A stretch of DNA of 64,000 nt. Origin: Muricea muricata (lineage: Eukaryota > Cnidaria > Anthozoa > Malacalcyonacea > Plexauridae). A program made the translations under genes and the position numbers. How positions within the stretch are numbered: the stretch's first letter is position 1; the number at the start of each line of letters is the position of its first letter. Of this stretch, positions 2,413-22,499 are shown in pieces. Location: NCBI GenBank assembly GCA_963855995.1, contig OY979717.1, positions 1-64,000 of the forward strand, given 5' to 3'. The notes beneath the pieces were generated by a model. It was not told the origin of the DNA, made no database searches, and was given only the letters and a program-made list of their open reading frames with translations.

Positions 2413-2777
2413 CTAAAAATTGAATATACACCGACATCCCGTACGGTTGTAAAAATTGAATATACACAGACAATTATCATTCTGGTCTACTGAGTAAAAT
2501 AAGTCACATAAAAGAACCAGTTAATTTTGACTTCAGGCTGAAGTGTTTCTTATATAACAGGTACTTAGGAAAAAATATACCCCTATATTAGGAAAAAATA
2601 CAGGCCCACGTGGTTCTTAACTGGTTCTTATTTCCAGTTAGAAAACAATTCCTCCTGGTATAGAGTTGGAAACCTCATATTGTATAAAATGTGTTGAATA
2701 CATTGTGAAGATGAATTATGTTGTGAATTGAGGGCTGTTTTGATAAAACATATGCATGCAGGATGTGAAAAACTTAC
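2413..2777. other. Junction between 181-bp satellite and delta-catenin exon
   Basis: The satellite breaks at about 2412. Next come two close copies of aaaattgaatatacac (near 2417 and 2450), then AT-rich sequence. Around 2513-2640 there are several oppositely oriented gaaccagtt/aactggttc motifs and two taggaaaaaata repeats (about 2567 and 2588). No coding exon is recognised. It would be intronic relative to the minus-strand delta-catenin exon that ends at 2778. Confidence 0.5.
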
Positions 2778-3120
2778 TTTGCATTTTGCGAGTCCTGATC
2801 AACCAATTGATGTATAGTGCATATAATAGCACCGTAGGTTGGTTCTGTGACACCCTGGCTCCCTTCTCCGGGTGGCAGCCAGTAAACAAGATCCTTCATC
2901 GCGTGTTTGCCTGACAAAAGGAAGACGCAGAAGTGAAGCAAACGGACTCTCGCATAGCAAACTGCAAACCAGGTCTCATACCTATAACAACTTTATTCCT
3001 TGTGTCCAACGCCAGATTCCGAAGTGCTGTGGCGTCTGCCCGAATGACAGCATCGTCATCGACTCGGAGTAACTCGACTAAGATCGGTAGACCCTTCTCT
3101 CGCCATAATAACGCTGACCA
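2778..3120 (-). CDS. Two adjacent exons of a delta-catenin (p120/ARVCF family), partial
   Basis: Upstream exon 3120-2982 and downstream exon 2910-2778 are joined by a 71-bp intron with GT (2981-2980) and AG (2912-2911) ends. The first starts after a ttttccag acceptor (AG 3122-3121); the second ends at a GTAAGT donor (2777-2772). The joined frame is open for about 91 codons and reads [18 protein letters not shown], then [18 protein letters not shown], then [14 protein letters not shown]. These match the ARM repeats of p120-type catenins, which have an ALRNLA-D-RNKELIGKHA block before a loop ending in LPGG. Such proteins bind the cadherin juxtamembrane tail and stabilise cadherins at the membrane. 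Phase is consistent across the intron and no stop is present. No other delta-catenin exon was found; downstream the gene would run into the 181-bp satellite, so this is probably a fragment although these exons look intact. Confidence 0.8.
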
Positions 3121-5449
3121 CTGGAAAATACGTGGAATTATTTGAAAAAATATTCTAGATACATATGCAAGGCTAAATCAATGAAGGTTCAACTGTAAAC
3201 TATGAGCGTGCAGGGATGTTAAGTAATTACTTATTTTCACCTCTAAACACGGAATTACTTCCTTGAAACAGCATCGAGAGCACAAAGGAAACTTACGAAG
3301 GCAAATTTACTTGCTAAAAGGGATCAGGGTTATACAAATAACTAATATTTATAGTAAAACATTTTTTAAAGAGGTGAAAGATGGAATTTTGCAATCAACA
3401 AGTTAGATCGCCATTTTGTTTTGTGAGTTTACTACATGAAATTCCATCGCTCAATTGTAGCGCCACGTTCGTGGATACGCCATTTACTGTAGTGTGTGCG
3501 GAACGTGTGCGATAATAACATCTTGAGTGATTGAAAACAATGAAAGCTACTGCGCAATGGAAAGAAATATTTGCACGGTTCCATGCACGATAATCAAAAC
3601 TGGAAACTTCTGTTTAAGCTATAAAATTAACCAGAGAAATAAATCTAACCAATAGAACCAGTTTGAAAGGGATAAGGAAAACATCTCGAAATATTTCTAC
3701 TGGTTATAGATCAGGCCCACTAGCACATTTCTTCAGTAAATTTTCTAGTTATTGTAATTACACTAACTATTCATTTGGTAAACCCCTCAATAAACAATGA
3801 ACTGAACTATTGCTGTCGCATACAAGAACAACAGAATAAACACTAATGGTGTCACCTCGGAGCGATTACAGAATTCCCGGCCACTCTAAACAGTTTTTGG
3901 TTTTAGGGGATACGGGGATAAGCAGTCATTAAAATGACAGAACTATATGAGTAGTTTAATGGTTCAAACACTAAGAGGAGAATGTGTGACTGTTATACGA
4001 CGATAAGCAATGATTGAATGACGTAAGTTTTGAAGTAGTTTAATATGTACTATAGCGAGCAGGTAGAGAGATTTATAAACTGTGATTGTAAAAAGTATGC
4101 ATTGTTATCTATGCATCATAGCTGCTCAGACAAATATTTAAAAAGCATTGGAAAGCATGTTTTCTTATTTATTCGGCATTTGCCATTTTAAAGGTTAGCA
4201 AAACTTGTTTAACTTAAAGTTGCTCAATGTTTTGAGCTCTGGCATTGTGACAGTGTCCCTAACCCTAAAACTCATGAAAATACATGATATATTTATACGA
4301 GTAAATCACTGCATGCGTCTATATCATGACTTACATAATATTCACGAGTCCAATGTGATGAGCTTATAAAGAACGAAGCAAATACATGCATGTGAGCGTG
4401 TATTTTAAAAAACGAGCGAAAGTCATGAAATACATAATATAGTTATCTGATTAAAGTACTCGAATATTTACGTCATTTCAATGACTGTGTATCCCGTATC
4501 AGTAAAATATTCATGACTGCGTATCCCCCCCCCCGAAAAAAACAAACACCAAAAGTGGCCGGATATTCTATAATCTAGCCGAAAGGATCAAGTGGAGCTG
4601 TTAACCAATGTCGCGTGACTGCAAACTCTCGTGCTCGTTTGACCTGGTCTGATACTTTAACATAATTTATAAGAAATGTGTTTTGAGGGGCTGCGAAGAA
4701 TCGATAATTGAGGGGATCCATAGTTATATACGCATGTGTTCCCAAAGTGTAAAAACAATCGATTTGAAACAAAATTAATGATGCAGCACTCGAATATTTT
4801 TCCTTCGCTAATCGATCTTCCGAAACTGACCCATCTGTTCTTTTCATTTTTCAATCATCTGTAACTTGCTGAATATCTGACTTCCATTTACACTCACGAA
4901 TACCGTACAGACTATGCGTACGTTAAGAAAATTATCCCTCTCAGTTTTGATTTGCGACCGTCTCTGAATGGCATTAAAACGATGAAACATGAACAATGAA
5001 TTGTATCATTGTTTGAATTTATTAACTTTTTTCAAAATTATTGCTTTTATTTTATCACTTTTTCATGTTTTGAACGAAAAACGAGACAATATGATTGGTA
5101 AATGATGTCTTTAAAAAAATTGAATCATGTAAGCAAGCTGTTGTGAAATTGTGATTAATGCTTCTTAAAATATCACAGAGAAGCATTAAAAAGCTCACTT
5201 TTCAAATTTTGCTGTAAATCCCAGAATAAACCCTTAATTTAGAATAAGTTATTACCTGAAAGTTCACTGAATGTCACTCTCGCTCACTTGTTTTGCCCTA
5301 AAAAATAAAAAAAAATTGTGAAACTCAATCACCAATAACCTCAGGGACTGTTGATTAAAGAATGGAAATTAGGACGTATATTCATGCAATTATGCTGTTT
5401 CTTACTAGCGTCAAACAATAATAAGCAACTGCAAGTAAACTTCTGAGAT
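3121..5449. other. Non-coding AT-rich stretch, no gene recognised
   Basis: Both strands were read for homology and none was recognised. Contents include a run of about 11 C at 4526-4536, a short telomere-like ccctaaccctaaaac at 4257-4271, and diverged inverted motifs (tcatgacttacataatatt near 4324, agtcatgaaatacataatat near 4422). A minus-strand open frame of 90 codons at 4575-4847 has no recognisable domain. Confidence 0.5.
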
Positions 5450-6417
5450 ATGATAACAGACGCAGCCCTGGACTCAAGTTATGAACATTTGGAACAACCT
5501 AATAAAGAAAGTGTGTACTCCATTGACAAGGACAATACTTCTACCTTGACGTCATATTTCGTTACGCTTTTGGTATATTGCTTCATGTGCCTATCATTCA
5601 ACAGTATATATACCACCGTGTTGGAGAATCAAAAGGGCTGGTAACTAATAAGACGGAACATCATAGTAATTGTGACAACCATACTGCACACGATAATCCT
5701 GAACTTCAGAGGATAATGAAGGATACACAAAGTGAATCCTCACTTATCCTCCTAGCCACCATAGTTACTGCAACTATCCAAACATTATTCATGACCCTCA
5801 TGCTTGGGTCATGGTCAGATAACGTTGGACGTCGAACTGTTACAGCAATTGTGATATTTGGAAGCATTACGGAGAGTACACTTATATTGATTATAATATG
5901 TTTTAAACTGCCAATATTTTCTCTCATCCTATCGAGCTTTATTGGTAGTATGTGTGGTTATTTCCCCACAATAATACTGTCAGTGTTTTCATATATAGCT
6001 GATGTAACCCTCCCTGATCAGCGTGCATTGCGACTTGGTATACTTGAAGCAGTTGCTTTCATAAGTGGAATGATAAGTCACCTATCAAGTGGATGGTGGA
6101 TTGAGAAAGCTGGTTATGTCGCACCATATTGGCTGATAAGATCGTTACATTTTTGTGCATTTCTTTATACAATATTTGTATTACCTGAGTCTCGTCAAAT
6201 CAATGTCAAAAAATTTGGCGCAGGTCTATGTCAATTTGAACATATATGGTCAATTATTAGATTATTTCAAGAACCAAGACAGGGCCAGCGATCGAAGTTA
6301 ACTCATTTGACGTTTGCAACATCATGTATGATGTTATCATCAACTGGTTTTGGATGTCTGTTTGTCCTTTATGCTCTTGACGTACCCCTGTGTTTTAATT
6401 CATTATTTATTGGTTAA
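5450..6417 (+). pseudogene. Truncated, frameshifted SLC46-type MFS transporter
   Basis: An ATG at 5450 opens a short frame (MITDAALDSSYEHLEQ...) whose hydrophobic segment then has to shift by one base, somewhere in about 5527-5575. Past the shift the frame reads FGILLHVPIIQQYIYHRV, the SLC46 first-helix end and QQYIYHR signature. The second frame runs to 6417. It shows MFS motif A (LGSWSDNVGRR), the SLC46-like FSYIADVTLPDQRALRLG, further helices, a short loop after LPESR, and helix 7 ending LYALDVPLCFNSLFIG, where a stop follows. SLC46 proteins (folate/antifolate-type proton-coupled carriers of plasma or lysosomal membranes) have about 12 helices and 450-500 residues. Here only about 7 helices remain and the C-terminal half was not found downstream. 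A GT at the break (attg|gttaat) could be a splice donor, so a long intron is the alternative. I favour a pseudogene. Confidence 0.8.
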
Positions 6418-7132
6418 TTCAGAGGAAGGGAATTATCGTTCAGCTGCGTTTTTTATTTACACCACTTTGCCTGACCACCTGACCACGTTGGCTGCTACAC
6501 TCGTCCAATGTGGTTTAAATTATTTACCAGTTTTTAACAGAATGGGCCACAAAAAATGGTTACACAATTTGAACCACGTTGGAAGAATGTGGTAGCGAAC
6601 ATATTCCAGTGGTAAAGACAATGCATATGTGTATCAATCAGAATCTGTCACTGAGGCCGCGATCAACACCTGGCTTTGCCAAAAATCCTCTTGGCTTTGG
6701 TCACTTTAAAGAACTATATAGGCCAGAACGCTTGGACAACTTAAACCACCTTGCCAAAGCGTCATAACCAACGTAGCCCAGTGGTCAAGTACAAATGTCT
6801 CAACAAACGTGGCTAGGATCAATTCCTGCCTATAATTTCATTGTACGGTCATTGCCTGCAGTCAAAGAAGACGCAGTACCCGAAAATCGCAGAAAAGCCA
6901 GGCATGTGAGAAGCTAAGTACACACTACACTAAGTACAGTATGCATAAAAAACCCATTTACGTGACATAAAGTATATTACTGCATGTATCAGTAACACGA
7001 TACGATAGAAGCATCTCATTTACAACTGCGTTTTGTACTATGGTAGAATTTACAATCCTGTAGTGGACGAAAACGAAAGAAAACAAGAAGCATTGAAGGA
7101 CATGATTCAAGTCAATCTTCAATTGTCCAGCT
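6418..7132. other. Non-coding stretch with tRNA-like SINE remnant
   Basis: No protein homology was recognised. Short diverged direct repeats are present, such as ttgaaccacgttgg (6568) and ttaaaccaccttgcc (6740). The recognisable item is the tRNA-like segment at 6774-6826, listed separately. Confidence 0.45.
6774..6826 (+). repeat. tRNA-derived SINE-like remnant (A and B boxes)
   Basis: The A-box-like tagcccagtgg (6774-6784) is followed 42 bp later (start to start) by the B-box-like ggatcaattcc (6816-6826; 9 of 11 match ggttcgantcc). The sequence after the A box, gtggtcaagtacaaatgtct, matches the tRNA-like segment inside the 622-bp satellite (gtggtcaaggtaaatgtct) apart from one small gap. That suggests the two share a source. 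No terminal features of an intact SINE were seen. Confidence 0.45.
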
Positions 7133-7135
7133 TTA

Positions 7136-7801
7136 GACCCCGCTCACACGATACCGGCCGACAGAGTTTGAAAACGGTATGAAATTCTTACATTTAGGGG
7201 CTGCGTTCACACGATGCCGGTATGAAATTGTGTGAAACCATAATGCCAACCGTAAGAGTTTGAAAACGGTATACGTACCGTAAAAGCTTGAAACCGTAGT
7301 GAAATTCAACCGTCAGACTACCGTGTGAACGCCTAACCGTTAGTGTTTCATTACGATTAATACAAAATAATGAAATTAACAAAAGTTTTTGTTGGATATT
7401 ATATTCTGTCTATTTTAACTGGTTTGTACAGCACATTGTCAATAAATTTAAGCTTGTTACAAAAACGTTGGGTAGAAATTGAAAAGGACGTCGTATTCTC
7501 ACAGTTTTATTACTGGATACAAAAAAAAAAACGAAAAGGAAAAAAAGAGAAGACAACGCCGATTCTGGTCGATGCCAGGACGAACTTCTTCTTGGTGGCA
7601 GAGTTTTAGAAATAACCTTGTTGTGGAAGAGCAATGGCGAGAGAATTTCCGACAATTCAACGACTCAAATCCGACATTGATCCGGTTTCGTGTGAACGCA
7701 ACACCAAAACGCGATATCACTCTACCGGTATCGTGTGGACATTTGAAAACCTAATGATTTTTACCAGCAGAGTCACATACCGGCATCGTGTGAACGGGGT
7801 C
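7136..7801 (+). mobile_element. PIF/Harbinger-type non-autonomous transposon with TTA target duplication
   Basis: The left end gaccccgctcacacgatacc (7136) and the right end, which ends in cgtgtgaacggggtc (7801), are inverted repeats with few mismatches. TTA flanks both sides (7133-7135 and 7802-7804), the 3-bp duplication typical of PIF/Harbinger. Subterminal copies of the cgttcacacgatgccgg motif recur inside (about 7204, and inverted near 7685-7740). The interior keeps a transposase N-terminus (7370-7660) but no DDE catalytic region, so the 666-bp copy cannot be autonomous. It sits 75 bp beyond the last MCM2 exon (splice donor at 7876). Confidence 0.8.
7370..7660 (+). pseudogene. Harbinger transposase N-terminal remnant
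   Basis: An ATG at 7370 opens MKLTKVFVGYY..., with QKRWVEIEKDVVFSQFYYW before a long A run (about 7520-7531). After that run the coding frame changes by one base to give RRQRRFWSMPGRTSSWW, then QSFRNNLVVEEQWRENFR. The block R-R-F-W-x-x-P-G-R-T-x-x-W-W and the E-x-W-R-E-N-F-R end are typical of the N-terminal part of animal Harbinger/HARBI1-like transposases. The copy then breaks into terminal-repeat sequence, so the DDE nuclease domain is absent. The family call rests on recognising this motif and agrees with the TTA duplication. Confidence 0.65.
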
Positions 7802-8257
7802 TTAAACAGAGGAGAAACGAAACTAGCTGTTAACTACATGGCGCAAAATGTTTATCAGTTATCCAGTGCAACTTACCTGAGTGTACGGATTTCTTCCATT
7901 AAGGGCAACTCGGCAATTCTGACATAAATGTCGTTTGTAGTCTGATCATATCTTTCGTACATTGACAACACAACCTCCTTCGCAGCCTCGTCAAAAATCT
8001 TCAACATTTCTGCTGGTGCTTCGGGTAAGAAATAGGCCAAAACTTGCAGAGGTTGTTCACACGCGAGAACATTGTAGTCAGTTACGAGAGTCTGAAGGTT
8101 TCCTGGAAGAAAAAAGATGTGGGCCTTTAAAATTTCGTACAAATTTCATAGAGAACTCTAAGGCCATATATAAAATACGTTTGATGATTCTAAGCATTAG
8201 CTATAATCCCTAAAGCCCCGTACGGACAAGCAAGTTGTCCTTGACAAGTTTTATTTG

Positions 8258-8700
8258 CTCGTGTGTACGTGAAAAAACTGACAACTTTTCCTTGACAAGG
8301 AGCCTGGTTTAAAAGCTAGTCGTACCAGCTTTTCGCCAAGGAAACTTGCTCGTGTGTACGTGCAACAAGGAACACTTGACAAGGGAATTGTTTGTTTACG
8401 TACTTAAATCATGCGGCCTCGTAAAAGTTGTCAAGGAAAAATATTGTCAAATTACGCGTACACAGGAACAAATAAAGTCTGTCATGGAAAAATTGTTTGT
8501 CGTGCAGACGCGTAAGAGAACTCGTCAAGAAACTTGTCAATGTATTTTCTCGTGTGAACGCGAAAAAATGACAATTTTTCCTTGAGAAGGAGCCTGGTTT
8601 AAAGCTAGTCGTACCAGCTTTTCAGCAAGGAAACTTAATCGTGTGTGCGCGCAAAAAGGGAATTTTTGTGTACGTACTTAATTCATGCGGCCTTTACATT
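8258..8700 (+). repeat. Tandemly duplicated repeat in MCM2 intron 4 (about 290-bp unit)
   Basis: Two diverged copies lie in a row. The block tttccttgacaaggagcctg (from about 8287) recurs as tttccttgagaaggagcctg (from about 8577), and gtacttaaatcatgcggcc (about 8399) as gtacttaattcatgcggcc (about 8673). Motifs of the form ctcgtgtgtacgtg recur several times and look like transposon subterminal repeats. The left flank starts ccccgtacggacaagcaag (8216), but no matching inverted end was found on the right, so the element type is open. It lies between MCM2 exons 5 and 4. Confidence 0.6.
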
Positions 8701-8729
8701 CAAGATAATGTTCAAAATTTACAATGACG

Positions 8730-8880
8730 TTATTGACATTAAGGGACTACACTGAATTGCAAAGTATCATATACAGAATCGACCTCACCACCTATCTCTC
8801 AGCGGGTTAAGCACTGGGCTAGCATTTCAAAGGTTATAATAGTTCTCATTCCTCGTGAGCCAGGCACAATTTCTGATTAA
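8730..8880 (+). repeat. Possible degenerate tRNA-like SINE piece
   Basis: The segment tctcagcgggttaagcactg resembles the D-arm/A-box part of a tRNA-derived SINE. The B box is not clear downstream, so this is weak. It lies in MCM2 intron 4. Confidence 0.2.
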
Positions 8881-9249
8881 CAAGTGTACCGTATCGTAAC
8901 TTGTATCCCGGTATCAACAGCCATACCTTCACACATCAATTTGATTGTGTCTCTGTACACACTCTTGCCATGATGATCCACAAATGTCTTTACAAATAGT
9001 TTGAATCTGTTTTTGATTTCATTTCTCGGCGCCTGCAGACACACCCACTCTCGTATGGTGTGTCCCTTCATATCCTACAATTCTCTACACTTTCTACCAT
9101 GTCATTGCCTAGGTCAATGTCACCCTGGGCATGTCATCTTCATCAGTTTCATCTGAGGGAAAATATATAAATAGTTTCTAACTTGTTTAAGTTTAGAACA
9201 CAAGAAAATGGACTGGTGATATCACATGCCTTTTGATGTATGATTATTT

Positions 9250-9484
9250 AGCGATTAGTCGTCCAAGGCGAGGTAATTACAAGCCTATATTCACCTCGCC
9301 TGAGGCAACTAATTGTTTTAGTATAAATTTCCCTTTTGAAAAATTAACTTCAAATTCATAACTGTATACAAAAGCAAAAAGCAATAGTCACTGGTCAGTG
9401 ACTATCACTTCCGAGAAAGCAAATCTTGACCAATCAGAATGCAGGAAAATCAATAGTCACCTGGAAATTTATACTGAACAGAAA
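9250..9484. mobile_element. Two neighbouring palindromic MITE-like pieces in MCM2 intron 3
   Basis: At 9251-9312 an imperfect palindrome pairs ttagtcgtccaaggcgaggt with acctcgcctgaggcaactaa. At about 9312-9484, tgttttagtataaatttccc at the left pairs with tggaaatttatactgaaca at the right, giving a short inverted-repeat element that encloses gtcactggtcagtgac, itself a palindrome. No transposase or clear target duplication was seen. Confidence 0.45.
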
Positions 9485-10161
9485 TAGATCACATCAAATC
9501 CCAACAAGCACAACCTAAAAATGTGCTTCTAAAGGAGCTTCTAAATGCAATTTGAACCCATACGAAAAAGTATTTCAAGTCAATGCTCTGTCAAAAGTCA
9601 GCACTTTTCTCCCACAGGGAAAATTGTCAGGTCGGCTACGCAATACTGGCTTAATGTGGTGTGGCTGTCTGCCATTTTGCCAAAAAATAAATGAACAAAC
9701 TGTATAGTACCATAACGAAGTCCTCGTCTCAGTCTTCCAGATGTTAAAGCCTCCTGTCTGTCTCTCCTTCCCGTCACTTTCTCAGCTTCTTGTCGAGCCC
9801 CAATGTCCATCTGATCATATTCTTCATCATCAAGTGCTGTTAGGTCACACATCAAGTCGAGGGATTGCACGATAGTCACTAGAAAGAGAAAAAAAAAATT
9901 GTTTTTTAAGTTCATAAACAATTTGTAAAATGAACTTGACAAATAAACATACTCTTCCATATTGTCTCCCATCAAATCAATTCCATCGTCGGCCTCGTCT
10001 TCCACACCACTTTAATCATTTCCCAAAATAGCATCTGACTAATCCTCAAGTGGAGCCAAATGCCGAGCAGGACTGGTCGTCAACGCATCTGTTCGATCAT
10101 AACGTACATCATCTTGGGGGTCTCGGCTTGGACTGGTTGCGATAGTGCTTGACGAATCCTC

Positions 10162-12088
10162 CTTAAATGAAAAGGCAACATTATAACACAAGGAAAATAT
10201 ACCAACACAAAAAAAAGATGGCTGACATATTTATACAGATGAGAATAAGCAGTCAAGAAGGGCATAGTTAATAGAGCTATAAGGTTTGGAAACTCATTAC
10301 AACTACAATACAAGTCATTATCCATGTTTTTGTTCTGATTTATGCAGAAATAAGGTCCTTCATCATCACATGCATATTGTAATTAGACCTAACGAACCAA
10401 TAACAATGTTTTAGAAAAGTTAGCCACCTGCAACTTGAACAATAGGGTAATTCAAGAATTGCTATTGGTAGATTTGGTAAAAACACACTACACATGTGAC
10501 GATGAAAAACCATATTTTGCATAAACGTTGACCAACATAGATAATGAGTTACATAGTTATTCTAATAAGTTTTACTCAATTAACTACGAGAAGGGGATGG
10601 AAGTAGTCATTAGGGCAATATTAAAAATCCTCTCAATATGTTTGAAGCTGGAAACTGCACAGTGGCATCACTAATATGCGCTTGGACGGGGCACACTGGG
10701 TGATCTCCAGCCACAAAAGCCTTAAGGGAGGGCCCTGGTATTGTCATTTTTCAAGACAAAAGCTGACATTGCTGACGTATAGTGCCTCACATTCTTCAAG
10801 CAAACACAAGTGCCAAAAAATGGGAGAACGACAAACAAACAATGATTTTGGCAACAGGAGATGTATTTTGGTAAGTTCAATTTCTCACTTTACTGACTAA
10901 TGAATATCAAAACAATTTTGACATAATTCTGTGACATCTTCCCCTCCAAAAGTCCAGGGAAATGAAATTTCACCATTTCTAGTTTGTAGTAGGGCAGGGG
11001 GGGTTCACAAATTTTGAACCAGGGGCCTGTGGCCATGATGGTAAAGCACTGAAACTGCAATACACATACAGGTAAAGATTGAGTCCAAGGTGACAATTAA
11101 TGGATGCATAATCACCATCGCACACTGTAATATTTCTAGGACATACAAGATGTTAATCAGGAAAAATTGCCTGATATGTAAAGAAGACATCAGCAAAACG
11201 TAATTACTGTAGGTACATATTTGCCAATTCAACATCTCTTAAGAGGAGAATTTTCAATGCAAGTTGCAAGAAATTTTGCAGCACGTGACAACATCTTGAT
11301 ATTATTGAACAGACTTGATCCACATTAAGTTATCTGTAGTGGCACGGCTTGCAACAGCTTACTGACAACAGACTTGTTGCAAGTTGATTGTCAAAACTTG
11401 TTATCCACAGGCTTGCTGCAAGTTGTTTCAACAAGTTGGAAGAAGTCTGCAGATGGCAAGTTGCAACAAGCTTGTTTTGAAGAAATCAACAAGTTTGTTA
11501 CAACTTGTCGACATTTTTTAACAAGGAGGTAAAACTAACAACCTGCAAGAATGCTGTGAAAAAATAAGTACTCATAATTGTGATGCATTCTGTAACTGAA
11601 ATTGTGTATTTATCATGATTTTCAGCATTCAACAGGTATTGAGTCCATACCTGTTAAAGGCTTGATGGTCTAATAACTAAAAGCTCACAATAAATATTTT
11701 CAGTCACAGCTGAATGTGGAGAATAGTTATTGCTTTCTTTAAGGAATTCATAATTATAGTATTTTGAGGGATTTAAATACACAAGCCATATGTCAAACAT
11801 TGGCTACACAACTTTACAATTGTCTAATGTTTTGATGAACTTGACCGTCATTTTGAACCAAAAACAAAGTTAAATGAGGCATATAATTTGCTGACAAATA
11901 ACAACAAGTACTCTTGATATAATATTGAAGAATACAACACATGGAATACAATTGACCTACAACATGTCAAAAGCGGCAGTGAAATATCGTATTGTGAAAG
12001 GCAAAACTCTTCAAAATTCATCACTAAACAACCATAGCTACTTCCAACATGTTTATTTACTTCAAATATAGTAAAATACCAAACTTAC
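10162..12088 (-). other. MCM2 intron 1 with no recognised gene
   Basis: This 1.9-kb interval lies between the GTAAGT donor after Met-Ala (12088) and the AG acceptor of exon 2 (10163-10162). Several open frames of 60-80 codons occur on both strands but none shows a known domain or conserved motif. A cluster of caagttg words fills 11346-11512. A stretch at about 10995-11040 (gttcacaaattttgaaccag) is a short imperfect palindrome. Confidence 0.6.
11346..11512. repeat. CAAGTTG/CAACTTG-rich imperfect repeat cluster
   Basis: The words caagttg, gttgcaa, acaagcttgtt and caacttg recur many times within about 170 bp in both orientations, with no fixed period. The stretch could fold into many alternative hairpins. 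It looks like a degenerate minisatellite or transposon end. Confidence 0.6.
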
Positions 12089-12360: not shown

Positions 12361-12470
12361 AAGGTGTCCGATTATAAACACGCAATGCACACGCGCAGAT
12401 CAATTAGAATATAATTACTGACGCTCATAATAACCTATTGTTCTCACTCTGCATTATATGACAGAATCAT

Positions 12471-13354
12471 TACACCATTTGCCCCTCATTAAGCGAGAAA
12501 AGAATGTCATGAAGATCATTTTGCAGCTTCACAAATACAAATCGGAATTTCAATGACACATTGTGTGCAAGTCAATAAGCGTGAAGGGATATTCAATAGC
12601 AACAATTGACTCAAGTATGCATAAAAATTGAAATCCATTAATCAAAGATGGAAATTCAATAAGAATACAAAGAACATTCAAAAACACAAAAGAAGTTCTT
12701 GTTTGAATACAAGAAACGCTCAATTAGATAAAAATGTATGTTCAATAAAACCTAGGTTTACTTTATAGACACGCAATCATATTAACCCCAAAAACAAAAA
12801 AATGGAACGTTCATTATCAAGTTTTATCAGTCTAAGTTTGTACGTGGCGTTGCCATAACTCTGCTGTGCTTGCCACCCATCCTGTCTGGAGCCTTGCTTG
12901 CTTTCTACAGTGGTACACTGTACAAGATTTCACTTCGTTTCGACACCTTTGTAACATTTCACGTTATTCAAAAACTTTTAGAACAATTCAGCAAAGCCAA
13001 ATATTTGCCGGAATAAAGAATATTTTTCAACAGCCCTTTTCTTTTCTTTGAGCATGTTGGTGTTCACATGACAACTTCGTTGAACATACATTTTTATCTA
13101 ATTGAGCGTTTCTTGTATTCAAACAAAAACTTCTTTTGTGTTTTTGAATGTTCTTTGTATTCTTATTGAATTTCCATGTTTGATTAATGGCTTTCAATTT
13201 TCATGCATACTTGCGTCAATTGTTGCTATTGAATATCCCTTCACGCTTATTGACTTGCACACAATTTGTTATTGAAATTCCGATTTGTACACGTGAAGTT
13301 GTAAAATGATCTTAATGACATTCTTTTTTAGCTTAATGAGGGGCAAATGGTGTA
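12471..13354. mobile_element. Fold-back element with about 275-bp inverted arms
   Basis: The left arm (about 12471-12745, starting tacaccatttgcccctcatt) is repeated in reverse complement at about 13080-13354, which ends gaggggcaaatggtgta. The arms match along their whole length with scattered differences, for example at aaacgctcaattagataaaa against ttttatctaattgagcgttt. The 335-bp centre has no recognised coding potential; a 61-codon open frame at 12866 is not gene-like. Long arms and a short core fit a MITE or fold-back transposon. Target duplication is unclear (AT at most). It lies just upstream of the MCM2 exon 1 region. Confidence 0.8.
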
Positions 13355-13600
13355 ATAGGGTTAGATTCTTAGGAAAAACGGGAGCGGTCTTTTTTGATTG
13401 TAGGGAAATTACCAGGGGTAAATAATATACGCGCTAAATGCCACACTGCAATATGAAAATTATTGCAGCCAGCTCCGTAAAGGCGTTTTATCTTATATAT
13501 TGAAGAGTGAAAATAAGCGCCACAAAAACACAGTTTCACACAATACAATAAGCACTACAAATCTTTAATAGCTAATAACTAATTGGATTTATTATACACG

Positions 13601-13867
13601 CTACGTTGGTAAATACAAAATAGCAGTCATATTCCATAGACGGTAAACTTTAAAATCAGATTTGTACGAAACAACTATCTTGGTGGAATCTGTCTGAATA
13701 ACAATTAGCTGATCAGAGCCAGACTTTACTTTATTAAAATTTTCTTTAACGTCTGTCTTGGTTTTACATTCTGCACTCGTTGCAACCTCACGCGAAACAC
13801 TTCTGAACGATCTTTTTGAACGATCTTCGAAACACTTTCTGGCGATCTTTTTGCACTCTTCATCCAT
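13601..13867 (-). CDS. Hypothetical ORF, unrecognised
   Basis: From ATG 13867-13865 the frame reads MDEECKKIARKCFEDRSKR and continues about 88 codons, ending NMTAILYLPT. It is rich in Lys, Ser and Asp with no membrane segment or recognised motif. It lies head to head with the AMDHD1 remnant (first visible exon from 14007), so it could be a first exon of a divergent gene or another fragment. No clear splice donor marks its end. The coding call is weak. Confidence 0.25.
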   Translation of the reverse strand: MDEECKKIARKCFEDRSKRSFRSVSREVATSAECKTKTDVKENFNKVKSGSDQLIVIQTDSTKIVVSYKSDFKVYRLWNMTAILYLPT

Positions 13868-14006
13868 GTTAGCCTCACAAAAACTACCTTGCAATAGTTG
13901 ACTTGCTTTTCTTTTTAGTGAAGACGAGGTGCATTATAGGAACTGCCATGCGAGAAAGTGCTTAAAGGAACTGCCATGAATAATGTGCGCATATTGACTG
14001 GGCCAG

Positions 14007-15150
14007 TTAGCATGGTAGTAAACTCTGAGGGGAACATTGCATAATTGCTGAAGATTCTATAGCCGTTTCTCAGAAATTTGAAGAGAAAGAATTCGCAACG
14101 ATCTTAGAAGCAACGGACTGTTGTGTTATGCCAGGTAAGGATACGTCATATAGAACAGGGCTAGAGTAAAGATTATGGTACTCCGATAGTACTTGAAACT
14201 GATAACAATTATAGCAAAATAACTGTACATCATTTCTGGCAAAGCAATTTGTATTATTCTTAAAGGTTGCATTATTCTCTGGATTTTTCAGGTTTGGTTG
14301 ATGCTCACACTCACCCTGTTTTTGCAGGGGATAGAGTATATGAATTTGCAATGAAGGTAAGTCTACTCCAACCCCAAATTTCTAACCATGAGAAACACAA
14401 CTGTTACGATAGATAGTAATGCTATTTCACGATGGCAGCGTTATCTCAGTCATTAAATTAGACCAAAACTGTGCTGTATGGTGAAAAGGTGTGCCCATTT
14501 GCCACTGATGACCATATGGCTGGGTTTCAGCCACATGATGGTATTATAATGCTTGGTGCTTAACTTCAAATAGAAACACCATTATTGGATCAAGTTAAGT
14601 ATTTATCATTGGTATTGACCTTGAGTTTGGTAGCACATATGTACCATTGAAAGGCTTTTGCTCACTTCCATAAGGCATAAAGCTGCATGCCACCAAGCAT
14701 TGCCCTTGAGTGAACCCCCCTTCACACTGCACCATTAATTCATCCCATCAGCAATGAAATTACCGCATGTGCTTGAATCAATATTGTAAACATTTATAAT
14801 AACTTCCACTAGTTCTATTAATGCCACTGGTAATGCATCTGGCGTGTGTGACATTTAGTATGACCATGAATGAAGCACTTGTGGCCAGTACAATCAACGC
14901 TGCTGCGTCAATAAAGAGATCTCATTCTCATGGATCATTGGAGATTGGCAAATTTGCTGATATGCTGATTCTGGACTGCCCGAGGTAAAATATGTCAAAG
15001 TAAGGGCAATGTTTGAAACATGCCTTCTTTAATCAATATTTTTTTATGTTTTCTAGATGGAAACATTTAATTTACCAGTTTGGTGGACATGATCATGTGA
15101 TAAAACATGTGATTAAGAAGGGACAACTTGTACATTCTCATAAAGACTAA
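14007..15150 (+). pseudogene. AMDHD1: AMDHD1 (imidazolonepropionase) remnant with internal deletion
   Basis: Exon pieces: 14007-14134 (MVVNSEGNIA, one-base shift, then IAEDSIAVSQKFEEK to CVMPG, then gtaagg); 14292-14356 (LVDAHTHPVFAGDRVYEFAMK, then gtaagt); 14813-14984 (MPLVMHLACVTFSMTMNEAL, ASTINAAASIKRSHSHGSLE, GKFADMLILDCPR); 15057-15150 (WKHLIYQFGGHDHVIKHVIK, stop TAA 15148-15150). These match the imidazolonepropionase (HutI/AMDHD1) family, which hydrolyses 4-imidazolone-5-propionate in histidine breakdown. DAHTHPVFAG is the metal-binding H-x-H of the amidohydrolase fold. About 230 central residues, with further metal and active-site residues, should lie between the second and third pieces, but only 456 bp of unrelated sequence is there. 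The N-terminal coding start is also missing. A processed copy is excluded because introns remain. Confidence 0.88.
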
Positions 15151-15942
15151 TAGATTATTTATTACTGTTTTTCATCATAGAATTATAATCAAAGACAAGC
15201 ACACATGAAGTTTGTAAGTTTTAACTTTAATTTTCCATACAAATTAACCCCCCCCTCCCTTATTACCTACAGTATATACTAGATTAACCCACTGCATAAA
15301 CCCCATTAAAGATGTACATAGAAAGTAGAAAACATGTACGTATGTCATTGCCTGCATTATAATCGAACACTGTGTTTTGCATTTAAGGAATAGAAGTGAT
15401 TGGAACAGTACTACTGGTATTCAGACTTTAAAGTTTAAGGTGACTCAATAATCTAAATCATGATGCTACATTGCACAATAGGTACTTTGCTCCATGGAAA
15501 ATTGCCATAGAATCTTTTATATTGTACATGCAAAGCTAATCAGTTCATTGCATAGCTCTACTGGTTGTCTTCATAAATAGAAAAGTTTTTTCTCCTACCA
15601 ATAATATATCCAGAGATAATGTTGTCATGGATAAGGATAACTCCACAGTTTATGCAAATTAAATTATATATAATTTGATTTGAACAGGGAAAATGATTTC
15701 TACATTTAGGCAAACTTTAAAGAAACTTTTTTTTGGAATACAGAGAACAGTGTTATAGTGCTGTGAAATGAACCAATTATGAAGCTACAGCATTTACTAT
15801 AAAACATTTCTAAGCGGAGAAAAAATTTTGCTTATCTATAACAGAAATTACGGAAAGCAATATTATAATGGACTTAGAGAAAGTTAGTTTTTAACCCGTT
15901 TAGAAAATGGTATGTTGGATTCAGTCCAGATATATCACGTGA
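15151..15942. other. Non-coding, nothing recognised
   Basis: AT-rich sequence follows the AMDHD1 stop. It contains a C-rich patch (accccccccctccc, about 15246) and short A/T runs. No exon, tRNA or inverted-repeat element was recognised on either strand. Confidence 0.5.
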
Positions 15943-16328
15943 TCAGTAATGGTCATTCACTTTATCACAAGGTTGAGCGAGTAAGATCTTAGGTGTCACG
16001 CTCTGGCCATGGATACAGACATGTATGTTGAGTGCACCAGAATTATTAAAACTACGAGGACAGTAGCAGCACTTGAAGGGCCTCTCATTCATGTGATCCT
16101 CCATATGCTTGCCCAGCTCTGTTCAGATGGTACACACACAATCACAGTACCTGCATGTGCAGTTCTTGCTCGATTTTGAACAGTTATGCAACAGAAATGT
16201 TTCACGGTTGTTAAAACATTTGGCACACTTGGAACAATATGCAGACCCCTCAGATGGCCCCTCATTGTTGGGCAGTTTATACCACTGGTGTACTAACTTT
16301 ATCCACTTATAGCTTATTATAACTTATA
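15943..16328 (-). pseudogene. C2H2 zinc-finger protein fragment with in-frame stop
   Basis: The minus-strand frame ending TGA at 15945-15943 reads, from about 16328: ...YCSKCAKCFNNRETFLLH, then CRYCDCVCTI, a TGA stop at 16125-16123, then TELGKHMEDHMNERPFKC and CYCPRSFNNSGALNIHVC, IHG. Two C-x2-C ... H-x3-H fingers are clear (HMEDH and HVCIH), joined by a MNERPFKC linker close to the TGEKPYKC type; a third is degenerate. C2H2 arrays bind DNA. The stop lies inside a finger and no start codon or upstream part was found, so this is a decayed piece of a poly-finger gene. Confidence 0.75.
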
Positions 16329-17087
16329 TAAAATTTTGGATATACTAATCACCTTTGCACTGCCACACTGAATGACATTAGACAATTATTGAATGAGGTC
16401 GAGCAGGATATGAGGAATTATTGAGGTGGAGGTTTGTATTATCCACCAAAGCCAAAGGCTGAGGTAGATAACACAAACCAAGGCCTTAATAATTCGTCTT
16501 ATCCAGCAAGAACCGAATTCAATAATTGTTTTATTATTTTTTGAAAATATTTTAAACTCAGTTTAAATGCTTGCTTTGTAAGTAAGAAGACACTAAAAGT
16601 CGCATAAATTATAGCGTGACGTCATATCTTGCTTCAACATGCGACGAAATGACTCATAATGTTGTATATTTATTTTCAACCCCAAATTTGGGCAACTACC
16701 AAGCAGATATGACGATTTCACCTTTAGCTCTTAACCAATCAAAACTCCTAAAATATTTTCAATAAATAATAATATTTCTTACTGCTATTACCATCAACAC
16801 CACTGTAAAACACCCACTATCAATTACTGTCAATCAAGACCATTATCTCAAATCAGAAAGCATATATATCTATTAAGTTATAGAATTCAAGTTCTAATTC
16901 TGCAGTTAATTAATTTTCTTACCTTATAACCATACATTTTCTGCTAGTGACAGCTCCAAAATCAACTTCATAAAACATCTTTGGAGAGTGACAATCTTCC
17001 TCAAAACATCAAATAGTAATCAACCAATTAATAGATTAAAGAGCTGAGGACATATTTTGAGTGAGGCCTGGCTGTGGAAACTAATAC
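16329..17087. other. Non-coding stretch with a palindromic MITE
   Basis: Apart from the hairpin element at 16382-16530, nothing coding was recognised. It should hold the next LCMT1 introns and exons if that gene were complete (minus strand, below 17088), but no later LCMT1 exon is visible. Confidence 0.5.
16382..16530. mobile_element. Palindromic MITE-like element
   Basis: The left half acaattattgaatgaggtc (16382) continues to gcaggatatgaggaattatt. It pairs with the right half aattcgtcttatccagc... aattcaataattgtt (ending 16530). The whole 149 bp folds as one imperfect hairpin with a short centre at about 16446-16470. No target duplication was determined. Confidence 0.6.
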
Positions 17088-17538
17088 CTTCAGTTGCCAA
17101 TAACGAGTATCAAAGCCAGATCCAAGGTTTATGACTTGACAATTGTTGTCGGTGAACTCAAGAAACTGCAGTGAGATAGTTTCCATTCCTTTCACATGAG
17201 AATAATAACCTGAGGAAAATTAAGATGACAAATCTGAATCACACATCAACAAACTGCTTCATGGAATATACAAATTAGAACTATATAGTTCTTAGAACTA
17301 AGTTCAAGATAGAAAATCAATAAGACGAATTGCTTGTCCTCTTGGTGCCTGTGCAATCTATCTTGTTTCAAAATATTGAAATATTTCTATCGAGAACAGA
17401 CAATTCTATCAGCCAATGATATGATGTATAGTTAGGAATCAAATTACTAACAAACCTCTGTTAATCTCGGGTGCCTTTCTTTCAACAGTCTTAACAAAAT
17501 GTTGGATGTACGGTAATCTTGTCAATATCCCAACTGAA
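17088..17538 (-). pseudogene. LCMT1: LCMT1 (leucine carboxyl methyltransferase) fragment, two exons
   Basis: The upstream exon, about 17538-17456, ends PYIQHFVKTVERKAPEINRG across the junction (donor GT 17455-17454). The next exon, 17209-17088, reads YYSHVKGMETISLQFLEF, then CQVINLGSGFDTRYWQLK, donor GT 17087-17086. This is the LCMT1/PPM1 family, SAM-dependent enzymes that methylate the C-terminal leucine of the PP2A catalytic subunit. RKAPEINRGYYARV and the SAM-binding motif NLG-G-DT are family signatures. In the first exon the expected SVGYW-DPYI reads SVGILTRLPYI in the open frame. Aligning it needs small insertions and a TGG-to-TGA change, so it appears damaged. Remaining exons were not found on either side. 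Confidence 0.82.
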
Positions 17539-18417
17539 CTGAAAATCTGAAAATTATATAGAAAATCTAACCAAGTGGACAATGGAGATCTTGACTCATT
17601 CTGGCAACATGAGGTAGACATTCTCAAAGTCTGTTTTCCTTACAGTTTCGACAAGCAGGGACACAGCTACAGGCTGATAAAAAAAATTCTCATAAAGACT
17701 AATCACACTCAATGCCCCAAAAAACCCCTGAAATATATATAATTATAAAGTTTTTTTAATATAGAGATTGCTTGGGTACTTATGTTGTAGAATGAATGAA
17801 AAAATCTGAAATTTAAATGCTTACAACCCAGGGGGTGTGTATTCAAACACATTAAAAATGGCTTGTGCACAACATTACTTTTAAGCATTAAAGTTTTGCA
17901 CACAAGCCATATTTAACTTCCTGCAAGACTCCAGGTTTTGAAGTTTTAAATTTCTTAATTTTTCTGTTTATTCTACATTATAAGCACACAAACACTCTAT
18001 TTCAATAAAAAAATCGAGGCATTTTGCAAAGAAGAGAGCAATTCCAGATTTGTTCAGGCTTTTTCATTCACCCAGTTGAATGTTATTGGCAGAGGGGTGC
18101 ATATTCATACCATGTTCTGCCTAAACAAATGCCTTTTGAAATCCGCTGTGATTAGAGTTGACTTCAAAAGACATTCGTGAGCTGGGATGCAAGTGTACAC
18201 CCCTCCCCAATTAACTCTGTCCTGTCCCCAATACAATTATGCCCGTGTTGCCTGAACAGTTGCCGGAAACTTGTGCCAAGTCTATAATGTAACATACATC
18301 ACATTATGTTGTGAAATAATTTGAAACCTTGCACAAATAACTGAATAAGTCTTCTTTGCAAAAATAGTTTTGCAACTAAAAACAAATTTTAATAAGTTTG
18401 CGAAGTTTCATCTATGT
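17539..18417. other. Non-coding stretch with hairpins
   Basis: No exon was recognised. A hairpin at 17855-17915 pairs aaatggcttgtgcacaa with ttttgcacacaagccat. Motifs ggggtgtgtattca (17832), ggggtgcatattca (about 18095) and the inverted tgtacacccct (about 18194) may be ends of a decayed inverted-repeat element. Confidence 0.45.
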
Positions 18418-18425
18418 TCTATGGG

Positions 18426-18577
18426 CAGTAGCGAAGCCAGCCTGTCAATTTGGTCATGCTATGCAAATTTAAATCATTATCATTAATCATTTCTTTAGGA
18501 ATTAATTCCTTATACGGTTTATAAACACTGAAAAATTTGCATTTGCATGACCAAATGTCAGGCTGGCTTCACCACTG
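18426..18577. mobile_element. hAT-type MITE with 8-bp target duplication
   Basis: The left end cagtagcgaagccagcctg and the right end caggctggcttcaccactg are inverted repeats about 34 bp long with a few mismatches. Near-identical 8-bp flanks tctatggg (18418-18425) and tctatgga (18578-18585) are the target-site duplication. CAGtgGcGnAGCCAG ends plus an 8-bp duplication are diagnostic of hAT elements. The 152-bp length and lack of coding sequence make it a MITE. Confidence 0.88.
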
Positions 18578-18617
18578 TCTATGGACTATGGGTATCTTGG
18601 CTTAGTTTCAGACTTCA

Positions 18618-20358
18618 GTAGCGTAATGCGGGGCAAAACGAGACACTTAAGGATTTCACTTGCTATAAAAAAGCATGAAAGCAAAATCAAGTACTTTTTT
18701 CATAATGAATATGTTAAATAGACTCATGACTAGCAATACAGAGAAGAAAAACTCTTTTGGAGACACGGCTGTCGTGTTATGAGAACAAAAACAACAAGTC
18801 ATTATTGTCTCATTTTGCCCCAGCATGTGGGACAAAATGAGACAGGCAAATAAAATGCTACAAAAATGTTCAAAAATAAAAAAATTTTTAATCAAATGAT
18901 TTAACTAAATGTAACAATACATTAACTATCAGTTTCTTAATATATAAACAAATCACAGGTTGCATTTCAGATGACTACCATGGATTGACAGTTTTCCTGT
19001 TACCATAATGTTCAAACAAGGAGCATTTATCTCACTCCTTGCCTGCAGCAGACTTGGACCAGAACACATCACACACATGACATTTGGTATATCTTGCACA
19101 TGCTCAGTGTCAGATCTTAGGAACATTTTGCAGGCTAGGGTTGGATGACAAAATGTTGATGAAACATCAGAAACCAGTCATAGTCTATTCACTTGTTGGA
19201 GAACAGAGGCCAGCAGGGTCTGAAGCATGGTCGATCAAAGCAGACTTGTTTTTTCTTTCAAGTTCATCACTGGTGGGACAAACTTAACACCACTGACACA
19301 TGTCACTGAATACAAATAGAATAATATTATGGTTGTTCGACCATGTCTACCACTGGTCGCTAACAAGAGACATGCCGCTTTATAACATCTTCGAGACTAT
19401 AACTGTCACTGACATATGTACATTTATTAAACTATTTTCACAACATTTGAGTATTTATAAGCTACTCACAGACAGCTTATTTAACACAGTTGCACCAGTA
19501 TTATAATACAGTGGACAGGCGTTTTATTCACACTATATACATCAGTCACAAGTGGTTTTCGAAATGACAGATCAGGGTTGTCCTTTGGGTTGATCGGCAA
19601 AAAATCATGACCAATGAGTTTGCAGCCAAATTTAAAATTGTTGTTAATATTGCTTATTTTGCAGTAAAGTCATATACTAATGACCATTGGTGCAACATTT
19701 CTACTGTAGGCAAAATTTCACACAACTTGAATTGGATGATGTGTAACTGGTATCACACCAGAATTTGGTCACCTATTTACATGTTACACTGGCAATAAAT
19801 CCATAAAGAATTGGTGACTTTGCTTTATTGAGACAACATTAATATTGTGCTGTTGTGCAGAATCATTTAGTAAACACAACAACAGATAACGACAAACGAA
19901 AAGGTTCACATAAGTATACAAACTTAAAAGGCTGTAGGCTTGTCTCATTTTGCCCCAACTGCCTGAGTGAATTAAAAGTCGTGCAATGCGAAAAATTACA
20001 GTCAACATTAACAAAATATACATCTGACATGAAAGGGCACATGCTAATGCCTCTTAAATAAATAAGGTTTTATTCGATCGTTACGACCTGCGAGAGAAAA
20101 GAAATACTATTTAAAATATAAAATAATAATGTACCTTAATTTAACCAGACAGGATCCAATGTCACTCACAAAATTCAGGATAATTCTCGTCAGAAATTAG
20201 CCTTTGATTTGTAATAACTTTCAAAACAAGCCAAGAAGCATCACGAATGAGCCCGCAATTCCTTATTAGGCAAATAGCGGTAGATCACTCGCTATATTCA
20301 TTTAAGCCAAAATGTCTCATTTAGCCCCACTGTCTCGTTTTGCCCCGCATTACGCTAC
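18618..20358. mobile_element. 1741-bp non-autonomous DNA transposon with perfect 28-bp TIRs
   Basis: gtagcgtaatgcggggcaaa (start of 18618-18645) and its exact reverse complement (20331-20358, ending gcattacgctac) bound the element. The related word tgtctcattttgcccc recurs inside: a 39-bp palindrome at 18806-18844, a copy at 19941-19956, and tgtctcatttagcccc at 20313-20328. These look like transposase-binding sites. Open frames inside (60-80 codons) show no transposase motif. A target duplication is not obvious (flanks acttca / cttgac), so no superfamily is assigned. Perfect terminal repeats suggest a fairly young copy. Confidence 0.85.
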
Positions 20359-21210
20359 CTTGACATGTCTCAAAACCACTAAACTTAATCCAATTGACTA
20401 AATAAGTCATCTCTCGTAATAAAGTGGGGCTTGAGCACTGAACACATGTTTTACAAAATACATTTCAAGTAAAACCCAAACCGAAGAACCAGTAACACAT
20501 GTTTCTGTGTTACCATTATTAAATATGCCATAATATTCTCAAAATTTGTCAACTAATTTTGGATACTACCATCTAACAAAATAGTTGAGGATACCTTTTA
20601 CAAATAGATGCATCGTCATTCGTTGCCATAACCACATCATCGTGCGACTGCATAATAATTTAGTGCAATTTTTTAACTCAAAAGTTCAACACATAATTTC
20701 CAAAATTCTCAAATTAAATATTTTACGATTTCGCTAATTATTCCACGACACGCATCACGAAATATATCAGCATAATCATCCAGTTGATCTGACCGTGAAT
20801 AAACGGCCTGGAACTAGCCACCATTTTGCAATTGCTGTTTTTAATAACTTATAACCTTTATTTTCCTTCATAAAACTTGTTGAAACTTTGTTATTATGTT
20901 CAGCAAAGAATATAAAATGGATTTCTATTTGACAACTAGTGCCAGTACTTTTCGGTGTTTTCAGATCACCTAGATAAGACGAATTCTCGTTCATAATTAA
21001 AAACTTTCGCCCCAAAATTTAAAACAAAAGGAACAGTCTAGAAAACACACATTGTATTTCAAATCCCTTTTTTAATACTTAACAATGGATACTATTATAG
21101 CAGTTAACTTTATTTATATTATTTGAGGGTTATATACTATACCATCTTTTTTACAAAATGATGTAACATACTTAATCCAGGTGGATCTAGGAGTAACACT
21201 TAGCACTTTT
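20359..21210. other. Non-coding flank before the 622-bp satellite
   Basis: AT-rich, with no recognised gene. A minus-strand open frame at 20776-21015 (internal MNENSSYLGDLKTPKSTG) is low-complexity and unsupported. The palindrome ttagcact-ttt-agtgctaa (21200-21218) sits at the satellite boundary. Confidence 0.45.
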
Positions 21211-22330: not shown

Positions 22331-22419
22331 GTATATATGTACGTTAGCCTCTGCTGCTTGCAAAGATTGTGGTGCATTAACACCGCGGAAACGTGACGTA
22401 CCATCGCGTCACGCTTTTT
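22331..22419 (+). other. Representative TATA-like / double-hairpin / T5 block of the 622-bp monomer
   Basis: Shown for one monomer; the block recurs in every copy. A TATA-like gtatatatgt (22331-22340) is followed by hairpin 1, ggtgcattaacacc, and hairpin 2, cgtgacg (22392-22398), 8-nt loop, cgtcacg (22407-22413), then ttttt (22415-22419). A stem followed by a T run is what a short Pol III transcript would need to end, and TATA about 30 bp upstream would fit a U6-like promoter. Transcription is inference only. The block is almost invariant across copies (rare exceptions near 26111, 28001 and 61513). Confidence 0.4.
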
Positions 22420-22499
22420 GCAATACCTGAATTTAAGAGTCTAGAGGTGCTTAAAAAAATTTTTTTGCATTATCATTATTGTCAATCAACCCCAAAAAT

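What the first reader, a model, noticed from the sequence alone, without database searches (positions are those of the whole stretch)
2413..21210. Gene graveyard between two unrelated satellites
At least six unrelated gene fragments (delta-catenin, SLC46, MCM2, AMDHD1, zinc finger, LCMT1) lie within 18.8 kb on both strands. All are incomplete, most carry stops or shifts, and at least four keep introns, so they came by DNA duplication and not as retrocopies. A 181-bp array flanks one side and a 622-bp array the other. This mosaic resembles B chromosomes, sex-limited chromosomes or pericentromeres.
Basis: partly seen in the sequence, partly recalled or inferred. Interest (0 to 1): 0.75.

Follow-up and report, generated by a model that had tools for sequence, protein, structure and literature searches.

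The report
Gene-fragment block copied across chromosome ends
This stretch is one copy of an 18.8-kilobase patchwork of broken gene pieces, set between two repeat arrays, that this genome carries in closely similar form near many of its chromosome ends, so it is subtelomere DNA rather than a B or sex chromosome.

Summary
The window is the first 64 kb of contig C2 of a 453-Mb assembly with 16 chromosome-size contigs. Five probed segments of the 18.8-kb block chain into 24 full copies near 18 contig ends of 12 chromosomes, starting 2-351 kb from the end. Six of those ends show telomere repeats, and six chromosomes carry the block at both ends. This speaks against a B, sex-limited or pericentromeric origin.

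Three of the six 'unrelated' fragments (MCM2, AMDHD1, zinc finger) are one collinear duplication of C8:377-387 kb; the LCMT1 part matches C3:60.14 Mb; SLC46 has longer open relatives on C13 and C9. Noncoding distance to the sources is 0.09-0.10, yet the eight copies most like the window differ by 1-7 substitutions in 3.9 kb, and one copy looks recombinant.

Best reading: an old chimeric subtelomeric duplicon, spread or homogenised by exchange between nonhomologous ends. A new member of a known kind; the species was not identified.

The parts
1..2409 (+). 181-bp satellite array (one flank of the block; contig C2 begins inside it)
   Evidence: the same junction is in 15 of the 24 long rows; sampled at 150, 170, 190 and 210 kb of C5 left
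2410..21212 (.). 18.8-kb chimeric subtelomeric block (type-B copies begin at 2429)
   Evidence: 24 copies with five of five probed segments near 18 contig ends
2896..3177 (-). armadillo-repeat exon piece (catenin-like)
   Evidence: Pfam Arm 4.4e-05, PDB armadillo proteins; 25 rows incl. the window, no other DNA match in the genome at E 0.001
5527..6416 (+). SLC46-type transporter piece, 296-aa open frame, 3' part lost at 6416
   Evidence: frame open in 26 of 26 block-type copies (one of them 295 aa); longer frames (446 and 393 aa) at C13:12790258 and C9:302646
6831..16305 (+). segment collinear with C8:377-387 kb (MCM2, AMDHD1, PR/SET zinc-finger neighbourhood)
   Evidence: blastn, main pieces 80-92%; noncoding K2P 0.096 over 5533 sites
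7139..7801 (.). MITE-like insertion with terminal inverted repeats, apparent 3-bp TTA target duplication, empty site in C8
7876..10134 (-). MCM2 5' exons (7876-8103, 8928-9130, 9712-9846, 9952-10134) with three stops and one frameshift; possible first exon near 12093
   Evidence: the start near 12093 is inferred
12469..13356 (.). fold-back inverted repeat, 277-bp arms, inside a stretch absent from C8
13952..15150 (+). AMDHD1 piece: exons e1 (partial, frameshift), e2 and last exons; e3-e5 missing (1.5 kb present in C8)
   Evidence: e3-e4 DNA found once, at C8:384196
15961..16287 (-). C2H2 zinc-finger piece of a PR/SET zinc-finger gene, one stop, PR/SET exons absent
16421..21212 (+). segment collinear with C3:60143846-60148858 (LCMT1 neighbourhood)
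   Evidence: 85.8%, 92.4%, 74.3%; noncoding K2P 0.092 over 2722 sites
17088..17219 (-). LCMT1 exon, open, with splice-site-like flanks
18618..20358 (.). 1.7-kb transposon-like insertion with 28-bp perfect inverted repeats and TA target duplication, empty site in C3
21213..64000 (+). 622-bp satellite array; on C2 exact matches to one unit stretch continue to about 77.8 kb and appear again from about 233 kb

Best explanation
The block is a subtelomeric duplicon. Pieces of gene-bearing DNA from near chromosome ends (C8 left: MCM2-AMDHD1-PR/SET zinc finger; C3 right: LCMT1; an SLC46 region of the kind kept on C13 right and C9 left) were joined by DNA-level duplication, decayed, took in transposons, and came to lie between a 181-bp and a 622-bp satellite. 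The block, junctions included, then spread to many chromosome ends and is kept alike by exchange between nonhomologous ends (ectopic recombination, break-induced replication or gene conversion). The gene pieces are passengers; long homology at the ends is what propagates the block. Shown: copies, positions, shared junctions, collinear sources, insertions with empty sites, near-identity of several copies on different chromosomes, one recombinant-looking copy. Inferred: the type of recombination, the order of events, which locus is source and which is copy for LCMT1 and SLC46, and lack of protein function. The stated confidence is for the subtelomeric duplicon; for exchange between ends it is about 0.75.
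For: 24 full copies near 18 ends of 12 chromosomes. Left junction with the 181-bp array in 15 of 24 long rows, the other nine starting at 2429. Right junction with the 622-bp array in 24 of 28 end-proximal copies, the other four stopping at its border (split rows on C5 and C6 counted as one copy each). Telomere repeats at 8 of 32 contig ends looked at (left ends by first 10 kb, right ends by last 1 kb), six of them among the 18 with full copies. C5 left in order: telomere, other sequence, 622 array, block, 181 array, other sequence, second block, 622 array. Collinear sources at noncoding K2P 0.096 and 0.092, against 1-7 substitutions in 3.9 kb among eight copies and 98-100% over 901 bases for 26 copies. 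Copies on one chromosome are not closest: C12 left-right 7, C16 left-right 5, C12 right-C16 right 2. C16 right groups with C12 right and C7 left at three sites within window 4100-8000 but scores like C2 at 7860-9080 (2203 bits, against 2144 and 2149 for those two), as expected of exchange between ends.
Against: 14 of 32 ends have no full copy: C1, C9 and C14 have none at either end and C11 left has four of five segments. Most contig ends lack a telomere, so distances to the true ends are unknown. The window copy is one of three of 24 that break the orientation pattern (13 of 15 type-A copies face the telomere with the 622 side, 8 of 9 type-B copies face the body), a pattern seen after the fact; inversion or scaffold flips may explain the three. 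The copies compared base by base are two sets of eight (ten ends in all), picked as the best matches to the window and of type A, so near-identity is not shown for all copies; type-B junction rows are at 96-97%. No four-gamete conflict lies within either segment, so the recombinant inference rests on one copy across two calls. A second MCM2 family has a copy in the middle of C8 (6.48 Mb). No close DNA source was found for the armadillo piece.
Confidence: 0.9

Rival explanations
1. B or sex-limited chromosome that gathers autosomal fragments between satellites.
Against: Full copies on 12 chromosome-size contigs, six of them at both ends, 26 rows at 98-100%; C2 itself is a 71.7-Mb contig.
Confidence: 0.02
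2. Pericentromeric duplicon zone with centromeric satellites.
For: Pericentromeres also collect such mosaics (recalled); a second MCM2 family has one mid-chromosome copy at C8:6.48 Mb.
Against: Both ends of six chromosomes carry it and telomere repeats cap 6 of the 18 ends. In the listing of exact matches to 54 bases of the 181 unit, which I read as being in contig order and which is cut off in C5, C1 and C4 have none, C2 only its first 2.1 kb and C3 only 169.9-179.6 kb.
Confidence: 0.03
3. Assembly artefact: one subtelomere placed at many ends, or duplicated haplotigs.
For: Several contigs start or stop inside the arrays (C2, C4, C7, C11, C13, C16 left; C5, C7, C12, C13, C15 right); C13 left and C2 left have unusual orientation.
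Against: Copies differ by substitutions and indels, fall in two junction types, sit at different distances from the ends, and C5 left, sampled, goes from telomere through array, block and array to other sequence.
Confidence: 0.06
4. Subtelomeric family kept for a working product, with the SLC46 frame under selection and other pieces hitch-hiking.
For: The SLC46 frame is open in 26 of 26 block-type copies.
Against: The frame stops at 6416 while relatives run to 446 and 393 aa. DNA identity of 97% and 96% to them goes with protein identity of 95% and 93%, which looks like weak constraint by a rough estimate; dN/dS was not computed. Homogenisation alone keeps one state across copies.
Confidence: 0.08

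Closest known systems
African great-ape subterminal caps: pCht satellite with segmental-duplication spacers (PMC12154684, a preprint; abstract and 12 passages seen)
   Same: Duplicated gene-derived DNA between satellite arrays at many chromosome ends; near-identical sequence on nonhomologous chromosomes, read there as ectopic recombination.
   Different: There a 32-bp satellite and 32-34-kb spacers, one source locus per lineage, hundreds of copies; here 181- and 622-bp satellites, an 18.8-kb chimera of at least two source loci, tens of copies, in an animal that was not identified.
Human subtelomeric duplicons (PMC2323237; abstract seen)
   Same: Duplicon blocks shared among ends, with TTAGGG-like tracts at duplicon boundaries; here the 622-bp units next to the block hold a degenerate CCCTAA tract.
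   Different: The abstract stresses varied divergence and layout and does not mention satellite flanks.
Plasmodium falciparum subtelomeric SD1 (PMC2279139; abstract seen)
   Same: Multi-gene block of more than 10 kb, conserved in sequence, near the ends of several chromosomes.
   Different: SD1 carries genes, at least one shown to be expressed; here the genes are fragments.
Saccharomyces cerevisiae Y' elements (PMC13177704; search listing only)
   Same: Repeated subtelomeric unit on many ends.
   Different: Y' has its own coding content and lies next to telomere repeats (recalled); this block was seen tens of kb inward at C5 left.

Membership tests
Subtelomeric segmental duplication (duplicon) | Low-copy non-satellite block of high identity on two or more chromosomes | tested here: met
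   24 full copies on 12 chromosomes
Subtelomeric segmental duplication (duplicon) | Copies lie within a few hundred kb of chromosome ends | tested here: met
   24 of 24 full copies start 2-351 kb from a contig end; telomere repeats seen at 6 of the 18 ends
Subtelomeric segmental duplication (duplicon) | Derived from identifiable chromosomal sequence, introns included | tested here: met
   Collinear with C8:377-387 kb and C3:60.144-60.149 Mb; left part (2429-6830) only in part traced
Subtelomeric segmental duplication (duplicon) | Exchange between nonhomologous ends | tested here: inconclusive
   Copies on one chromosome not closest in the set compared; one recombinant-looking copy, C16 right; no four-gamete conflict within a segment
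Satellite cap with duplicon spacers (ape type) | Block sits between satellite arrays at many ends | tested here: met
   Both junctions shared by many copies; array length sampled at one end only (C5 left)
Satellite cap with duplicon spacers (ape type) | Same satellite on both sides, many spacers per cap | tested here: not met
   Two different satellites; one or two full copies per end
B or sex-limited chromosome | Sequence confined to one dispensable or sex-limited chromosome | tested here: not met
   12 chromosomes
Pericentromere | One site per chromosome, at the centromere | tested here: not met
   Both ends of six chromosomes; centromeres themselves were not mapped

The most novel reading that the evidence does not exclude
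The recurring layout (telomere, 622 array, block, 181 array, then a mirror-image second block and 622 array) may be a maintained chromosome-end architecture in which the gene-fragment block serves as the shared homology that lets nonhomologous ends pair and exchange, the way duplicon spacers are proposed to do in apes, but evolved independently and with different satellites in another animal.
Probability: 0.2. Interest if true: 0.6.

Novelty: new member of a known kind. Interest (0 to 1): 0.42.

Why it matters
If right, it adds an animal case, apart from the ape caps, in which a gene-derived block between satellites covers many chromosome ends and looks homogenised across them. It has traceable sources, insertions with empty sites, and two junction types, so the history of end-to-end exchange can be read from sequence. 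It also warns that 'gene graveyards' between satellites can be plain subtelomeres.

Tried and rejected
B, sex-limited and pericentromere readings: rejected on the copy map and the both-ends distribution. Retrocopy origin: rejected for the MCM2, AMDHD1 and LCMT1 parts, whose noncoding DNA aligns to the sources; not tested for the SLC46 and armadillo pieces, which show one open stretch each.

Led nowhere: ARAGORN on the whole window and Rfam on 1-26000 (gathering) and 21200-23900 (E up to 1) find nothing, although a tRNA-like promoter-box pattern shows on the minus strand of the 622 unit. A family search for the LCM domain in the genome gave no match, not even the exon known here, so it is uninformative. 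The species was sought by karyotype and size in genome notes: no paper held both terms, and none of the 23 notes has a 453-Mb, 16-chromosome animal. Literature searches with cnidarian or sea-anemone terms showed no paper on this subject among the 10 listed of 50 and the 10 listed of 56. A first alignment of copies was done without turning the minus-strand loci and is void; it was repeated correctly.

The rest were short repeats, satellite units, partial or split pieces (among them C16 right 11.25-11.26 Mb, C6 298-299 kb, C5:325813 and C3:60.40 and 60.148 Mb) and the seven 441-base MCM2 rows of the second family. Rows were chained if on one strand of one contig and under 35 kb apart. Scored candidates were capped by the tool, so counts are lower bounds. 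In some searches only the first places are listed; that they are in contig order is my reading, and 1000 forward matches may be a cap.
Full report
What was checked. The window holds a 181-bp array (1-2409), an 18.8-kb block, and a 622-bp array from about 21213 to the window end. Inside the block are an armadillo-repeat piece, an SLC46-type piece, MCM2 exons, AMDHD1 exons, a C2H2 finger piece and an LCMT1 exon. All six are partial. Three of six carry lesions inside the piece (MCM2, AMDHD1, zinc finger); in the other three I saw only truncation.

Where it lies. The genome is held: 453,007,491 bases in 74 contigs, with the window at the very start of contig C2. C1 to C16 are 124.2 to 11.6 Mb long. 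Contig ends were looked at by their first 10 kb (left; for C2 the window) or last 1 kb (right). Left ends of C1, C5, C6, C8 and C12 hold CCCTAA repeats (after leading N in all but C6; C6 over about 5.4 kb, then other sequence); right ends of C1, C8 and C16 hold TTAGGG repeats; left ends of C4 (first 1.6 kb), C7, C13 and C16 and right ends of C5, C7, C12, C13 and C15 lie in the 622 array; C2 and C11 left lie in the 181 array; C3 left reads N; the rest showed none of these over most of their length. Telomere repeats were thus seen at 8 of 32 ends.

How many copies. Five block segments were searched in the genome. Chaining the long rows gives 32 clusters, of which 24 hold all five segments, near 18 ends of 12 chromosomes, starting 2-351 kb from the contig end. 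Six chromosomes have it at both ends; C1, C9 and C14 have no full copy and C11 has four of five segments. Two junction types exist: 15 rows join the 181-bp array as in the window (type A), nine begin at 2429 without it (type B). The join to the 622-bp array is present in 24 of 28 end-proximal copies and the other four stop at its border (split rows counted once). In 13 of 15 type-A copies the 622 side faces the telomere; in 8 of 9 type-B copies it faces the chromosome body. The window copy is one of three exceptions, C13 left holding the other two. On C2, exact matches to a 622-unit stretch run to about 77.8 kb and start again near 233 kb. A flipped terminal piece or an inversion would explain the exceptions; that is inference.

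Anatomy of one end. Samples along C5 left, with the copy map, read: telomere to at least 10 kb, other sequence at 12-50 kb, 622 array at 65-120 kb, block near 124-143 kb, 181 array at 150-210 kb, other sequence at 230-305 kb, second block near 309-328 kb in mirror orientation, 622 array at 330-345 kb. Twenty 0.8-kb samples were taken; what lies between them is inferred. In the listing of exact matches to 54 bases of the 181 unit, taken as contig-ordered and cut off within C5, C2 has them only in the first 2.1 kb, C3 only at 169.9-179.6 kb, and C1 and C4 not at all, so in those four contigs this satellite does not look centromeric.

Sources. C8:377-387 kb is collinear with window 6831-16305, main pieces at 80-92%. 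There MCM2 goes on with its OB and P-loop exons, AMDHD1 has exons e3-e5, and the finger piece is followed by PR/SET exons. The exon pieces I took there are open frames by selection; no full gene model was built, so that these genes are whole is likely but not shown. The AMDHD1 e3-e4 DNA was found once in the genome, there. The block lacks those 1.5 kb. C3:60143846-60148858 is collinear with window 16421-21212 and its match ends where the 622 array begins; whether LCMT1 is whole there was not shown. SLC46 has longer open frames at C13:12790258 (446 aa) and C9:302646 (393 aa), 95% and 93% identical in protein, whose DNA match ends at window 6416. No DNA relative of the armadillo piece was found outside 25 block rows. 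A TTA-flanked MITE-like element at 7139-7801 and a TA-flanked element at 18618-20358 have empty sites in C8 and C3.

Time layers. Noncoding K2P is 0.096 to the C8 source (5533 sites) and 0.092 to the C3 source (2722 sites); coding 0.058 (1539 sites) and 0.074 (228 sites). Eight block copies on different ends differ by 1-7 substitutions over 3.9 kb (window 4100-8000), and a partly different set of eight by 1-9 over about 3.7 kb around LCMT1. These are the best matches to the window, all type A, ten ends in all, so they show the closest part of the family; over 901 bases 26 copies are at 98-100%, and type-B junction rows are at 96-97%. The chimera is therefore older than the spread of at least the type-A copies, or has been homogenised. 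Copies of one chromosome are not each other's closest (C12 left-right 7, C16 left-right 5, C12 right-C16 right 2). C16 right shares three sites with C12 right and C7 left in window 4100-8000 but scores like C2 in 7860-9080, where C12 right and C7 left do not. That is a sign of exchange between ends, resting on one copy; within each segment there was no four-gamete conflict.

Mechanism. Shown: duplicated DNA with introns, shared junctions, location near contig ends, near-identity of several copies on nonhomologous ends. Inferred: joining of end-proximal segments by illegitimate repair, then spread by ectopic recombination or break-induced replication, perhaps helped by the satellite arrays. I found no sign of a protein function, but expression and dN/dS were not tested; the open SLC46 frame in 26 of 26 block-type copies is explained well enough by homogenisation.

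Comparison. The nearest known case I saw is the ape subterminal cap, in which gene-derived duplicon spacers lie between satellites and nonhomologous ends share near-identical stretches (PMC12154684, abstract and passages). Human duplicons (PMC2323237, abstract) and the P. falciparum SD1 block (PMC2279139, abstract) are related kinds. It differs in having two unlike satellites, at least two source loci, and one or two full copies per end. I saw no report of this block in seven paper searches, of which only the listed papers were seen; the species is unknown, so it may have been described.

Noticed in passing
window 21880-63563 (68 places): The 622-bp units carry a degenerate telomere-like tract ACCCTAACACTAACCCT (68 matches at unit spacing with up to 2 mismatches, 67 exact; chance 0.01), so the unit may derive from a telomere-adjacent stretch.
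   Followed up: partly
C8:374339; C16:287900, C15:12292462, C14:181154, C9:204007, C9:14211650, C8:14366122, C8:6480711: A second family of MCM2 copies: the P-loop exon at C8:374 kb has seven full-length relatives at 97-98%, six near chromosome ends and one in the middle of C8, which might mark an old fusion or an assembly fault (the same seven places).
   Followed up: partly
L010:4831-7735 (C8 about 386.8-389.7 kb): The source of the zinc-finger piece lies beside PR/SET exons (PRDM2_PR 2.8e-27); it resembles PRDM9 by recollection only.
   Followed up: no
622-bp unit, minus strand (consensus): A box pattern like a tRNA promoter (an A-box-like stretch by eye and GGTTCGAATCC) without a tRNA call.
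   Followed up: partly
window 12469-12745 and 13080-13356: Fold-back element with 277-bp arms, 95% complementary, absent from the C8 source.
   Followed up: no
contig C2:1 and C13:1-207000: Orientation of the block copies departs from the common pattern at these two ends, suggesting flipped scaffold pieces or inversions.
   Followed up: no
window 2885-3140: The C2 copy of the armadillo piece spans 256 bases, the other 24 rows 267-268.
   Followed up: no
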